This document shows, piece after piece, positions 17,809 to 63,319 of a stretch of 64,000 nucleotides of DNA. The stretch is from Sthenelais limicola (taxonomy: Eukaryota; Annelida; Polychaeta; Phyllodocida; Sigalionidae): assembly GCA_942159475.1 (NCBI GenBank), contig OW804094.1, positions 50,464,966-50,528,965 on the forward strand, given 5' to 3'. The position numbers and the translations under genes were made by a program. Each line of letters begins with the position of its first letter. Position 1 is the first letter of the stretch. A model generated the notes under the pieces. That model searched no databases, was not told the origin of the DNA, and saw only the letters and a list, made by a program, of their open reading frames with translations.

Positions 17809-18118
17809 TTTTGGCTGTGACCAAGGAAACAACGGTTTCCCCCGAATCCCCTTAACAAATAATTAGTATAGCTATTTTTCAATAAACATTATTTCAATTA
17901 GATCTATGTAACAGGCAACACTCTAGGATATCCATGATGGACGTAGTGTATTTACATATGAACATTATTTAATTGTCTTGGCCGTAATGGAAATAAAAAA
18001 AAGACCCCTCCCCTCCCCCAATCGATCCAACGATTCTGTGAAGTGACAACGCTTTTCCCCCAACTTAGCGCGGGAAACACGTTGTCAAGGACTCAAAGTA
18101 CAATGCGCGTTACTAACG

Positions 18119-18931
18119 TTGCATAAGAAAGACTCCAATTCAAATCCGGGTTTGCAAGAAGATTTAGATAGAATTGTTAAGTGGTGTGAGTTAAACAAGA
18201 TATCGCTCAACACCAAGAAATGCAAATCAATGACTATTTGTTTGAGGCCAGAAAAAATAGATGTATGTAATTTTAGCATTGGTCAAAATGATTTAGATGT
18301 GGTAGAGTGTTATAAATTCTTGGGAGTAGAAATAGACAGAAAGTTAAACTTCAAAACATTCATGGAGAAAAAAATTCATGCCATCAGAATGAAACTCAAA
18401 TCTATGTCGAAACTTTATGGAATCTGCGATACCAAAACCTTATTATTAATATTTAAAACCACAATACTTCCTCATATTGATTATGGGGACATATTTTACC
18501 AAACTACCCCAACAAAATATCTAGATCGATTACAATCTTTACAATACTCTGCGTTAAAAATAGCGCTGAAATTGCCTAAATTTACAAGTTCTAAAGATAT
18601 CCATAAAACTACGAATATGCCTTCACTCTCTACCAGGAGACAAGGACATATCCTCAAACTAGCCTTTAGGTGTTCTTTGGCACCTGAAAACATAGACGAT
18701 AGAAAAATCAACTTAAGAGGGTTGAGCGTAGGGAAAAAACTGAAAGTTCCCAAACCCAATAACGAAAATTTCAAAAAATCTTATATTTACAAAATGTCTA
18801 CACTTTGGAATGATTTATCACAAGATACTAGACAAATAAAAACAAGGGAAGCTTTCCGGAATTGGTTAAAAAACGGCTACCCCCAGGAATGTGACCAATA
18901 TCTGAAAAAGGAGACTGTAAACTCCTCATGA
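18119..18931 (+). pseudogene. LINE ORF2 C-terminal half (reverse transcriptase palm/thumb), 5'-truncated
   Basis: An open frame of about 270 residues, readable slightly upstream of 18119 and ending at TGA. It contains VKWCELNKISLNTKKCKS, YKFLGVEID…LNF, ILPHIDYGDIF, LQSLQYSALKIAL and STLWNDLSQDTRQIKTREAF. These are the ordered post-catalytic RT and C-terminal motifs of CR1/Jockey-type LINEs. The YxDD box and everything upstream are missing. It is intact over a long distance compared with the other LINE pieces, so it is probably the youngest copy here. The likely 3' end is at 19769 (ACTGAATAAAAGTTG then ATA repeats). Confidence 0.85.
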
Positions 18932-24509: not shown

Positions 24510-25390
24510 TTCAATTCATTTAAACTAATTCTTTATTTTCAAAGATCTTACATGGGCATAAGGTTATGAGCCTATCCGGGGATCTCTTCCAGCCCATGCC
24601 TTATTTTTAACCTTAGATTCACTGTTTTTTCCCCTAAAAACTACATCATGGAGTATATTTCAGTGCGAAATACTAAAGATAAAAGGAGATTACAACACTT
24701 TTTCTATCTCAATGAGTGTCATCCGGGCTAAGATGGACACAGAATATCGTTTCTATATAAACAAGTACAATTGCTTCTTAGCTGCGATCTAACTGAGATC
24801 TAAGTTTACAAGTTATTAAGGTTACCTAGCGAAAAAGAAAGTACAGATTAATAAAGAATACAATAAATCACTCAGTAAGCAGGTTGCAGCAGAAGATGTA
24901 CAACAACAGCAAGAACATGAAATAAGATAGAAGGACGGTAATCAAAATAAACAATCATAAACAGTCATACCAAATTTTCAACAGATTAATGTGTAAGATT
25001 GGGATCCCATCACCCCGTTTCCCTATTGATATATGAGCAGAAGGCATGCCTGTCTGCAATTGTGTGTGCCTCAGTACTTAGATTGTTCCATTCGACTTGG
25101 CATTTATAAATGATAGAATTTTTAATTTTTGTTGTTTTAGGGGTTATTGTTATTGTTTTTAGATTTTTGTGGCTTGCATCATGACTTCTGGTTTTGAGCT
25201 TTCTGTGATCAATATTGTTTGGATTCTGAGCCAGGTGGTAGGCAATTTCAATAATATGTTTCTTCTTTTTTTCCTTAGGAGGTTGGATATTCATAATTTT
25301 ATATTCCTCATCAACGTTTTTAGTCTATTTTTGTCGAATATTGTTGTTAGTGCTGAGTTTGGCAGAGATTGAAGTTTATCAAGCATGTAC
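24510..25390 (-). mobile_element. 5'-truncated LINE inserted in a family A element, with 8-bp target duplications
   Basis: TTATTCAA at 24502-24509 and again at 25391-25398 flanks the insert. Removing the insert restores the family A order TTTATTCA-CAAGATCTC. The tail side (24510-24540) carries AATTGAA-type repeats on the minus strand. The coding remnant is at 25010-25294. Confidence 0.8.
25010..25294 (-). pseudogene. LINE ORF2 C-terminal remnant
   Basis: 94 residues with KNSIIYKCQVEWNNLSTEAHTIADRHAF. This aligns by pattern with KKSYIYKMSTLWNDLSQDTRQIKTREAF of the 18119-18931 LINE, so it is the same or a sister family. It is truncated at the N-terminal side. Confidence 0.75.
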
Positions 25391-25864
25391 TTATTCAAGA
25401 GATCTCTTTGTTGGAATGTTCTCCACTTTGGTTGTTTAGCGCATTAAGGCATAGGCTATGAATGTATGTACCAAATTTGAAGACCGCGCATTAAATATAT
25501 CCTTGTGTTTCGAAGGTCATCCTAGGGAGTATATTTTAGTTAAAATTGATAGTGAAATACCAACTAAACGACCAGTTCGCGGTGAGTTTTAGTGGAGATT
25601 TGATGGAGAATTATAGAATACAAGTTGCTATCGATGTGGAGGAAATATATCTACCGTGTTTGCATGATTATTTTCTTCTATTGGACTAAGGTCTATAATG
25701 GTGTGTCATTTGAACCGACCCATGAAGTATTAAGAATGGACTATGTGAAAGTGCACGGCGTCGGTGGTGGTATATGTTTTTTTACCTTGCCCCAAACCAT
25801 CCTATCATATTTTTATAGTATGTATGAATGACTGTGTGGTGGGATTTATTTTAATCGTATATTG

Positions 25865-26092
25865 TCTAATTGTTCGATGAGAAATTGGCTAACTTAAAAT
25901 TTTTGAATCATCAACTTGAAAAAACCTTTGTTTTATTGCATTATATTTGATAGATGTTACCCGTATTTGTATTAAATTCCTTATCGATAAAATTATTCTG
26001 TAATTCAGGCTGCTCTGGGAATATGTGTACCAGCATATGAAAATGTTCATTTTCCTGAATAAAATATTTCCAAATCAATCAAATCAGTTTGC
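25865..26092 (+). mobile_element. LINE 3' end fragment
   Basis: CCTGAATAAAATATTT followed by CAAATCAATCAAATCAG at 26055-26087 matches, in opposite orientation, the 3' terminus of the LINE at 6295. Upstream sequence back to about 25865 is AT-rich with no recognisable coding. It abuts the ribozyme-like motif at 26111. Confidence 0.5.
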
Positions 26093-26110
26093 TTCTTTGT
26101 TTTATTTCAT

Positions 26111-26152
26111 GTTCTCAACGTTTCGGTACTGGTAGTACCTTCATCAGGAGAA
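26111..26152 (-). ncRNA. Compact hammerhead-ribozyme-like motif (Penelope type)
   Basis: Minus strand, in order: TTCTC, CTGATGA, A, GGTACT-ACC-AGTACC (6-bp stem II), GAAA, C, GTT, GAGAAC. The leading TTCTC pairs with the trailing GAGAA to form stem I, and C…GTT supplies a one-pair stem III and the NUH cleavage triplet. This is the minimal, probably dimeric layout reported for Penelope-like elements. Departure: one extra A lies between CTGATGA and stem II. It sits between a LINE tail and a family A element, with no Penelope coding sequence adjacent. The structure is seen; activity is not established. Confidence 0.55.
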
Positions 26153-26155
26153 TAT

Positions 26156-26350
26156 TCTTTAGTTACTTTACTGGTAATTGCCCACCCAGAAATATTGCAA
26201 ACTTATTTTTCAAAAATAGAAATAGAAACCTAAAATATATAAATATTTAATAGCTGTCCTAATGTTTACCATCATTAGAATCGGCTTGCTCTTTTGATCT
26301 TTTCAAATAGGATGACCATTCTTTGTTCATTTTCCTGTGATACATCACAA
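26156..26350 (+). mobile_element. Family A element, right half
   Basis: TAGTTACTTTACTGGTAATTG through CCCACCCAGAAATATTGC to GATACATCACA. It begins immediately after the hammerhead-like motif. Confidence 0.85.
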
Positions 26351-26756
26351 TAATTTGTCCAGACTTTCTATCTCTACCGAAGTTACATTAATTGCTTGCA
26401 CTCTGCCTCTATATATGTATTATTGGCGTATTAGTCTACAATTCGAACTAAATCTAAAACGTAAAGATGTACAGAAAAAAAAGCCAAAGCCGTGCTTATT
26501 CTTGTCGACCAATACCACTACGAGAGCACGTGGAGTGGCCTCTCGTAAACAAAGACATAAATCAGGAAATGTATATAAAGACCCTTCAGTGCCCCTCCTG
26601 CATTTATATAAGCTTGACCTAATTACCCTATATGCGACCCCTAGGTCATAGGGGGCCTGGATGAGGGTGCAGCAGTTTCTGGGTTAGGCGTCCATGCTCG
26701 TCACTGTCCGAAGTACATCAGGTGCATTGAGAGCGCATTTTCTATTCCGACATCAG

Positions 26757-62849: not shown

Positions 62850-62935
62850 GTTTTCTGGTGTTGTTCTAGTCCACACTTTGTATTATACATTGTAAACGTT
62901 TATGGAAATAAAAATCTATTATTATTAATATAACT
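62850..62935 (+). mobile_element. Possible LINE/SINE 3' tail just before SCP exon 2
   Basis: GTAAACGTTTATGGAAATAA followed by an ATT microsatellite (62918-62933) looks like a retroelement 3' end. It lies about 20 bp upstream of the acceptor. Confidence 0.35.
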
Positions 62936-62956
62936 TTTTCTTTTCTGTCTTTCCAG

Positions 62957-63319
62957 GTGTGGGACAAGTACCTGTCCGGTGTTGGTGGCGGTGATGCTAT
63001 CTCTCAAGACGCATTCATCTCCGCCATGCAGAAGCTCGTCAAGGAGGCAGGTATGAAGGAGACCCTTGAGGGACCTCTTCCTCTCTTCTTCCACGCCGTC
63101 GACAGCAACAATGACGGTCTCATCTCCCAGTCGGAATACTCCGAGTTCTTCCGCATCCTTGGGTTGGACGTTAGCTTGGCTGGCCCAGCCTTCGCCGCCA
63201 TTGACACAAACGGTGACGGTGACATCTCCTTGGACGAGTTCAAGGCCGCTGGTTCTGATTTCTTCATGCAGCAGAACGCAGGCCATGCCAGCGACATCTT
63301 CTGGGGCCCACTCGTCTAA
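62957..63319 (+). CDS. Sarcoplasmic calcium-binding protein, coding exon 2 (residues 56-175, stop)
   Basis: Seen: a pyrimidine-rich acceptor (…CTGTCTTTCCAG) precedes 120 codons beginning VWDKYLSG and ending FWGPLV then TAA. EF-hand 2 (about residues 62-75, GVGGGDAISQD) lacks the acidic ligands and should be silent. EF-hand 3 is canonical at 104-115 (D104, N106, D108, G109, S112, E115). EF-hand 4 is canonical at 138-149 (D138, N140, D142, G143, S146, E149). So hands 1, 3 and 4 should bind Ca2+/Mg2+, the pattern known for Nereis SCP. The EGPLPLFF linker and the WGPLV end are also SCP hallmarks. Total length of 175 residues matches the family. There is no signal peptide or membrane segment. Long open frames on the opposite strand are shadows of the GC-rich codons. 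Calexcitin-like relatives are less likely because of the C-terminus. Confidence 0.96.
   Translation: MWDKYLSGVGGGDAISQDAFISAMQKLVKEAGMKETLEGPLPLFFHAVDSNNDGLISQSEYSEFFRILGLDVSLAGPAFAAIDTNGDGDISLDEFKAAGSDFFMQQNAGHASDIFWGPLV

What the first reader, a model, noticed from the sequence alone, without database searches (positions are those of the whole stretch)
26111..26152. Minimal hammerhead-ribozyme motif stranded between a LINE tail and a MITE
The minus strand shows, in order, a stem I strand (TTCTC), CTGATGA, a 6-bp stem II hairpin, GAAA, C-GTT and the complementary stem I strand (GAGAA). This is the compact layout, with almost no stem III, described for Penelope-like elements and proposed to act as dimers. 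An extra A between CTGATGA and stem II departs from the textbook core. No Penelope coding sequence is adjacent, so the ribozyme has been separated from its element or belongs to a small non-autonomous carrier.
Basis: partly seen in the sequence, partly recalled or inferred. Interest (0 to 1): 0.75.

Follow-up and report, generated by a model that had tools for sequence, protein, structure and literature searches.

The report
Retrotransposon fragment with hammerhead ribozyme
A 110-letter fossil copy of the start of a Penelope-type jumping gene, carrying that element's minimal hammerhead ribozyme, lies inside another repeat and was later split by a third; its relatives suggest how such dispersed ribozymes arise.

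Summary
The motif is real and beyond chance: ATTCTC-CTGATGA-A-GGTACT-ACC-AGTACC-GAAA-CGTT-GAGAA on the minus strand (26153-26112). The window's genome has 110 copies of the pattern, this one included (reversed control 0), and the stems covary. It is a minimal type I hammerhead of the Penelope-like element (PLE) kind; two copies flank a 787-aa reverse transcriptase frame with a sub-threshold GIY-YIG match. The 'extra A' is a family feature (97 of 100 listed copies). Rfam's models do not find it.

It is not stranded between two elements: a 110-bp PLE piece inserted into a MITE-like repeat (8-bp duplication), and a LINE 3' fragment later split it; the other half lies at 25584-25543.

New point: in the largest subfamily, 17-19 of 24 5' breakpoints lie within 12 nt of CTGATGA, near a predicted start site, often after a non-element G. 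The simplest reading is reverse transcription from an internal start just 3' of the ribozyme to the capped 5' end of uncleaved PLE RNA, which would explain scattered hammerheads without coding sequence. Cleavage was not tested; RNA folding does not favour the active core; a decisive genome count did not complete.

The parts
26148..26153 (-). A + TTCTC: predicted first nucleotides of the PLE RNA; TTCTC is the 5' strand of stem I
   Evidence: Inr-like TCATTCT and a TATA-like box about 38 nt upstream of CTGATGA in long relatives (read by eye)
26141..26147 (-). CTGATGA hammerhead core
26140..26140 (-). extra A between core and stem II, a family feature
   Evidence: 97 of 100 listed copies have A, 2 C, 1 G (read by eye); 44 of 46 distinct cores A, 2 C
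26125..26139 (-). stem II hairpin GGTACT-ACC-AGTACC
   Evidence: two-sided changes at 5 of 6 pairs in A2
26121..26124 (-). GAAA core
26117..26120 (-). CGTT: stem III reduced to A-U and C-G with no loop; predicted cleavage after 26117
   Evidence: numbering from general knowledge of hammerheads (recalled)
26112..26116 (-). GAGAA: 3' strand of stem I
26086..26111 (-). PLE leader downstream of the ribozyme, first half
   Evidence: aligned with L062-L066 and L068
25543..25584 (-). second half of the same PLE copy, separated by the LINE; the 110-nt sum aligns 101 of 108 with L064 and 98 of 110 with L066
26158..26165 (-). TAACTAAA, target-site duplication copy at the 5' side of the PLE copy (followed by GAAT at 26157-26154)
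   Evidence: comparison with other copies of the repeat
25535..25542 (-). TAACTAAA, target-site duplication copy at the 3' side of the PLE copy
25590..26085 (+). LINE-like 3' fragment (AATAAA, AAATCAATCAAATC tail) inserted in the PLE copy; possible 5-bp duplication AGTTT at 25585-25589 and 26086-26090
   Evidence: repeat matches; boundaries; LINE name by its tail, by eye
26166..26350 (-). MITE-like repeat, side upstream of the PLE copy
25362..25534 (-). MITE-like repeat, side downstream of the PLE copy

Best explanation
This is an old, 110-bp, 5'-leader copy of a Penelope-like element carrying the element's minimal type I hammerhead. Seen in sequence: long relatives have a TATA-like box about 38 nt and an initiator-like TCATTCT about 6 nt before CTGATGA, then the ribozyme, then about 70 nt up to a site where most copies of the largest subfamily end. 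Inferred: RNA polymerase II starts at the A 6 nt before CTGATGA, so the ribozyme is the 5'-terminal structure of the capped RNA. The PLE enzyme nicks AT-rich DNA, starts copying internally about 70 nt 3' of the ribozyme, and runs to the cap, leaving a ~110-bp insert with the ribozyme and no coding sequence. Here it landed in a MITE-like repeat and was later split by a LINE fragment. In the live element, cleavage after GUU would need two ribozymes, because stem III is only ACGU, self-complementary between two copies such as those of the two pseudo-LTRs, or protein help. Such cleavage would cut the cap, or an upstream unit in a read-through RNA, away from the copying start site. This particular copy is probably a fossil.
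For: 110 matches, control 0. Covariation score 0.455 against 0.205 in shuffles (0 of 500 as high) and at most 0.121 for slid partners; 86.8% of cells paired against 70.9%. Four stem II pairs form in 35 of 46 distinct cores with the extra nucleotide skipped, 0 of 46 otherwise. The 110-nt copy aligns over 104-110 nt with six other copies, 93-101 identities. Target-site duplication and other copies of the host repeat without the insert. Two pseudo-LTR copies 4.6 kb apart flank a 787-aa frame with RVT_1, 43.8 bits. Flank duplications: 24 of 64 copies score >=10 against about 2% of 1261 shuffled pairings. Largest subfamily, all 33 members among the 100 listed places, 32 independent: 8 keep upstream element sequence to -72, 24 break before; of these 24, 17 (gapped script), 18 (ungapped script) or 19 (by hand) break within 12 nt of CTGATGA; an even spread gives 18 or more of 24 with chance 5e-10. 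Base -7 is G in 9, C in 6, A in 2 of the 17 copies that lack the upstream marker and keep ATTCTC (one insertion counted twice among the G), but C in 12 of 12 that keep the marker; flank G is 17%. [quoted passage not shown]
Against: No Rfam hammerhead match. ViennaRNA prefers a longer hairpin over the hammerhead core for one strand, and the same pairs between two strands. In one search two of five measures (pairs and pair types with change) did not exceed shuffles. The GIY-YIG match of the 787-aa frame is below its cut-off (18.1 of 22.6 bits). Copies were found with a pattern that fixes CTGATGA, GAAAC and GTTGAG, so core conservation was not tested and copies starting at the cleavage site could not appear. 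L065 and L068 start at CTGATGA, not at -6; L093, L131, L133, L135, L081 and L072 break further upstream by script; L117 and others have filler; in L099/L127 and L131 the G may belong to the duplication. TATA and initiator calls are by eye, without RNA data. The window copy itself has GAAT before ATTCTC, not a clean G. PMC11167929 found no RNA-seq reads beginning or ending at the cleavage site, so in vivo cleavage is unproven there too.
Confidence: 0.78

Rival explanations
1. The short copies are retrocopies of a separate ~115-nt RNA started in the 3' pseudo-LTR and ended at the element's end, i.e. a SINE-like non-autonomous element mobilised by the PLE enzyme.
For: Same 5' ends and same length would result; the 3' pseudo-LTR copy L110 carries the same promoter-like upstream sequence.
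Against: Not needed: in three copies (L100, L109, L111) the sequence simply runs on past the usual 3' end into CAACAACAACTCACC, the element body, and internal initiation is shown for a lizard PLE (PMC11167929).
Confidence: 0.2
2. The motif is conserved as a protein-binding hairpin for the PLE enzyme, and hammerhead likeness is a relic; the fold GAUG/CGUU continuous with stems I and II is the working form.
For: ViennaRNA MFE forms exactly this hairpin, z -2.8; catalytic mutants of the lizard element still insert in vitro (PMC11167929).
Against: The motif has the full hammerhead core including unpaired GAAA (though the search pattern fixed it); the lizard ribozyme cleaves with protein and obeys the C3G/G8C rescue rule (same paper).
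Confidence: 0.2
3. A retrozyme (tandem non-autonomous circular-RNA element with canonical hammerhead).
For: Small non-coding carrier of a type I hammerhead.
Against: No second copy in the window (one search shows only a second match at E 0.67), stem III nearly absent, ends and tail shared with a PLE.
Confidence: 0.03
4. Chance hairpin resemblance.
For: The loose core alone occurs in 23 of 100 shuffled windows; no Rfam hit.
Against: 0 of 100 for the full structure, 110 copies against 0, covariation.
Confidence: 0.005

Closest known systems
Minimal type I hammerheads of Penelope-like elements (Cervera and De la Pena 2014, seen only as cited in PMC7229834, PMC7761336 and PMC11167929; Lunse, Weinberg and Breaker 2017, seen only as cited in PMC7761336 and PMC10085705; neither is held)
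   Different: Nothing essential shown; whether the extra A is drawn in those papers could not be checked
PAc, the Anolis Poseidon PLE with internal initiation of reverse transcription (PMC11167929, main text read)
   Same: HHR at the pseudo-LTR/ORF junction, RT start shortly downstream of it in AC-rich sequence, AT-rich targets, insertion without HHR cleavage
   Different: The main text does not describe 5' ends of genomic copies at a capped start site next to the ribozyme; its supplements were not seen. In PAc the ORF starts in the ribozyme; here the first long frame starts further down
Bdelloid Penelope elements with solo pLTRs and target-site duplications (PMC3846280, passages read)
   Same: pLTR pieces without coding sequence, duplications of 8-10 bp, putative TATA and initiator in the pLTR
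   Different: Solo pLTRs there are put down to possible recombination or deletion; no start-site ends reported in the passages seen
Animal retrozymes (PMC7229834, passages read)
   Same: Small non-coding carriers of type I hammerheads
   Different: Tandem, canonical hammerheads with tertiary contacts, circular RNA

Membership tests
PLE-type minimal hammerhead | CUGANGA and GAAA core with UH before the cleavage site | tested here: met
PLE-type minimal hammerhead | stems I and II conserved as pairs with compensatory change | tested here: met
   89.4% and 84.6% of cells paired, 95 cells with two-sided change against 42.8 in shuffles (0 of 500)
PLE-type minimal hammerhead | stem III absent or one to two pairs | tested here: met
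   CGTT, no loop
PLE-type minimal hammerhead | lies in the pseudo-LTR of a PLE | tested here: met
   relatives L109 and L110 flank L129 with a reverse transcriptase frame; the window copy is a detached piece
PLE-type minimal hammerhead | cleaves as dimer or with protein | not testable with these tools
   no wet test; RNA folding does not favour the active core
Rfam hammerhead families | score over gathering threshold | tested here: not met
Penelope-like element (source element L109-L129-L110) | reverse transcriptase plus GIY-YIG endonuclease in one ORF between pLTRs | tested here: inconclusive
   RVT_1 43.8 bits over cut-off 29.6; GIY-YIG 18.1 bits under cut-off 22.6 at residues 694-745
Retrozyme | tandem units with canonical hammerhead and circular RNA | tested here: not met
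   single copy in the window; circular RNA not tested

The most novel reading that the evidence does not exclude
Dispersed minimal hammerheads are mostly the footprint of reverse transcription that starts just 3' of the ribozyme and reaches the 5' cap of an uncleaved PLE RNA: the ribozyme is the cap-proximal structure of the mRNA, the extra G at many 5' junctions is copied from or added at the cap, and the genome thus records whether template RNAs had been cleaved. If copies starting at the cleavage site are rare everywhere, hammerhead cleavage does not feed, and may rather prevent, transposition, for instance by decapping PLE mRNA or severing read-through units.
Probability: 0.5. Interest if true: 0.62.

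Novelty: new member of a known kind. Interest (0 to 1): 0.45.

Why it matters
[quoted passage not shown] If short copies record the 5' ends of template RNAs, any genome with PLEs can be used to ask whether cleaved or uncleaved RNA was copied, without new experiments. It also gives a concrete reason why many minimal hammerheads are found away from any PLE gene, and places the ribozyme at the capped end of the mRNA, where cleavage would decap it.

Tried and rejected
Rfam scan: no hammerhead. Phage collection with 25900-26400: no match. First idea that the whole stretch 25542-26147 was one 611-bp carrier: rejected when its inner part matched other repeat copies and its last 47 nt matched four loci of which three carry a whole or worn ribozyme just upstream (L065, L066, L068) and one a cut one (L067). 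The repeat CTTTGTTTTATTGCAT/TTTCAT (D6), taken at first for the LINE's duplication (note), was dropped for AGTTT after comparison with L064. A duplication of 17-19 bp was cut to 8 bp because part of the likeness is the ribozyme's own stem I. The idea that copies ending just after GAAAC (L026, L014, L027) reflect cleavage was not followed far. Dimer folding gave no hammerhead core (which then stopped with an error; its scan was rerun). The 787-aa frame found no solved structure. Literature: searches (start site, cap-derived G; solo or dispersed copies, PLE with HHR) showed nothing that states the start-site reading in the titles and abstract starts seen; most papers are not held, and no supplement was read.

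Selection effects: one search used a stem that I mistyped (GACC instead of GGTAC), so its 59 copies all carry the forced AAGACC and were not used for the extra-A claim. Of the 100 places listed (110 in all), flanks of 85 were read: 83 in the scripts, the window and L056; 15 were not fetched. Seven of the last 19 fetched were picked because they belong to the largest subfamily, so that all 33 listed members were read. L099 and L127 are one insertion copied with its flanks. The flank-duplication scan used 64 of the 83.

Full report
Observation. Rfam does not see it; that its models need more of a stem III is my guess at the reason.

Family. The window lies in a 1.13-Gb genome of an organism that I did not identify. 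The pattern CTGATGAN{10,30}GAAACGTTGAG has 110 matches there and its reversed control none; 100 are listed, this copy among them. The nucleotide after CTGATGA was free in this pattern: A in 97, C in 2, G in 1 of 100 (by eye). Among 46 distinct cores, from 83 copies with flanks, four stem II pairs form in 35 when this nucleotide is skipped and in none when it is not. On an alignment of this copy and the 46, 86.8% of cells pair against 70.9% in shuffles, with 95 two-sided changes against 42.8 and a covariation score of 0.455 against 0.205; no shuffle of 500 reaches these three, and sliding the partners gives a score of at most 0.121. The numbers of pairs and of pair types with change did not exceed shuffles (362 and 253 of 500 as high), so the support rests on cells, score and the slid control. 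Stem I has at least two forms, TTCTC/GAGAA and GCTTC/GAGGC. Another form, with CGCGTT and CCC/GGG, was common among the 59 copies.

Source element. L109 and L110 are two copies of the pseudo-LTR 4.6 kb apart. The stretch between them (L129) holds a 787-aa frame with RVT_1 (43.8 bits, over the cut-off) and a weak GIY-YIG near its C-terminal end (18.1 bits, under 22.6). I call it Penelope-like on these grounds and on the shared ribozyme; the weak GIY-YIG match leaves that test formally open. The genome has 150 GIY-YIG matches among the 150 best of 739 candidates scored, several in frames of 770-800 aa.

Anatomy of the window copy. The 110-nt sum of 26153-26086 and 25584-25543 aligns to other copies: 101 of 108 with L064, 98 of 110 with L066, 96 of 104 with L068. 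It lies between two TAACTAAA duplications in a MITE-like repeat that has other copies without the insert in the same window. The stretch between the halves is a LINE-like 3' fragment on the plus strand with AATAAA and an AATC-rich tail; related stretches lie elsewhere.

Ends of the relatives. In the subfamily closest to GGTACACTGTACC all 33 members among the 100 listed places were read; L099 and L127 are one insertion, so 32 are independent. Eight keep upstream element sequence to -72; 24 break before. Of these 24, 17 by a gapped script, 18 by an ungapped script and 19 by hand break within 12 nt of CTGATGA; with an even spread 18 or more of 24 would have chance 5e-10. An even spread is a crude null. 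By another cut, 12 of 33 keep the marker ACACCATG or ATACCATG within 45 nt and 21 lack it. Seventeen of the 21 keep ATTCTC; the base before it is G in 9, C in 6, A in 2, while it is C in 12 of the 12 with the marker; G makes up 17% of the flanks. In L074 and L115 the G stands between the duplication and ATTCTC and is absent from the other duplication copy (and for L074). In L099, L127 and L131 it may belong to the duplication. In the other subfamilies read, 29 copies keep ATTCTC, with C in 17, T in 7, G in 3 and A in 2 before it, so the G excess is seen in the largest subfamily and not generally. Across 64 copies, 24 have flank matches of score 10 or more against about 2% of 1261 shuffled pairings. 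At the other end, 30 of 33 follow the common tail for 67-70 nt, to CAATTT or close to it, two for 61 and one for 14 by an ungapped count, whereas L100, L109 and L111 run on into CAACAACAACTCACC, the element body upstream of its first long frame.

Four copies were found by their tail: L066 starts with G plus ATTCTC, L065 (also listed) and L068 start at CTGATGA, L067 starts inside stem II; none of the four starts at the cleavage site (by eye). This is a small sample.

Mechanism. PMC11167929 (main text read) shows for a lizard PLE that copying starts inside the RNA, in an AC-rich loop near the ORF start, at AT-rich DNA, and that catalytic ribozyme mutants do not stop insertion. Put together with the ends above, the short copies are best read as run-offs from that inner start to the capped 5' end. 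The published step is internal initiation; the capped end, the extra G as cap-derived, and the uncleaved state of the template are my inference. Stem III here is only ACGU, so one copy cannot form it; two copies could. Neither one nor two strands are predicted to take the hammerhead fold by ViennaRNA, in line with the protein need reported for the lizard ribozyme.

Known and new. The ribozyme is a member of a known kind. [quoted passage not shown] The start-site clustering was not found in print in searches of open papers (titles and abstract starts); the two main papers on these ribozymes are not held, so prior description cannot be excluded.

Noticed in passing
L030 (C8:68.80 Mb) and window 26147: A PLE hammerhead copy of another subfamily sits in the same MITE-like repeat at almost the same site and in the same direction (repeat positions 211-218 against 216-226): a possible target preference.
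   Followed up: partly
window, many places: The ~417-bp MITE-like repeat has more than 20 partial matches in 64 kb, so it is probably a large part of this genome.
   Followed up: partly
genome C3:1930732, C3:16758382, C4:129379636 and others: GIY-YIG frames, mostly of 797 aa, in regular arrays at about 5.8-6.0 kb spacing, as in tandem PLEs.
   Followed up: no
genome, for example C2:111923793, C4:126664951: GIY-YIG matches inside single open frames of about 2260-2430 aa, much longer than the ~800 aa of other hits.
   Followed up: no
L026, L014, L027: Copies whose likeness to the family stops just after GAAAC, next to the cleavage site.
   Followed up: partly
L097, L117: Short filler between target duplication and ribozyme; in L097 it resembles the element's own start, as if the enzyme had jumped template (by eye).
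   Followed up: no
window 18047-18931 +: A 294-aa frame that looks like the end of a LINE reverse transcriptase (by eye, no search).
   Followed up: no
window 62912-63319 +: A 135-aa frame with EF-hand-like repeats, probably a host exon (by eye, no search).
   Followed up: no
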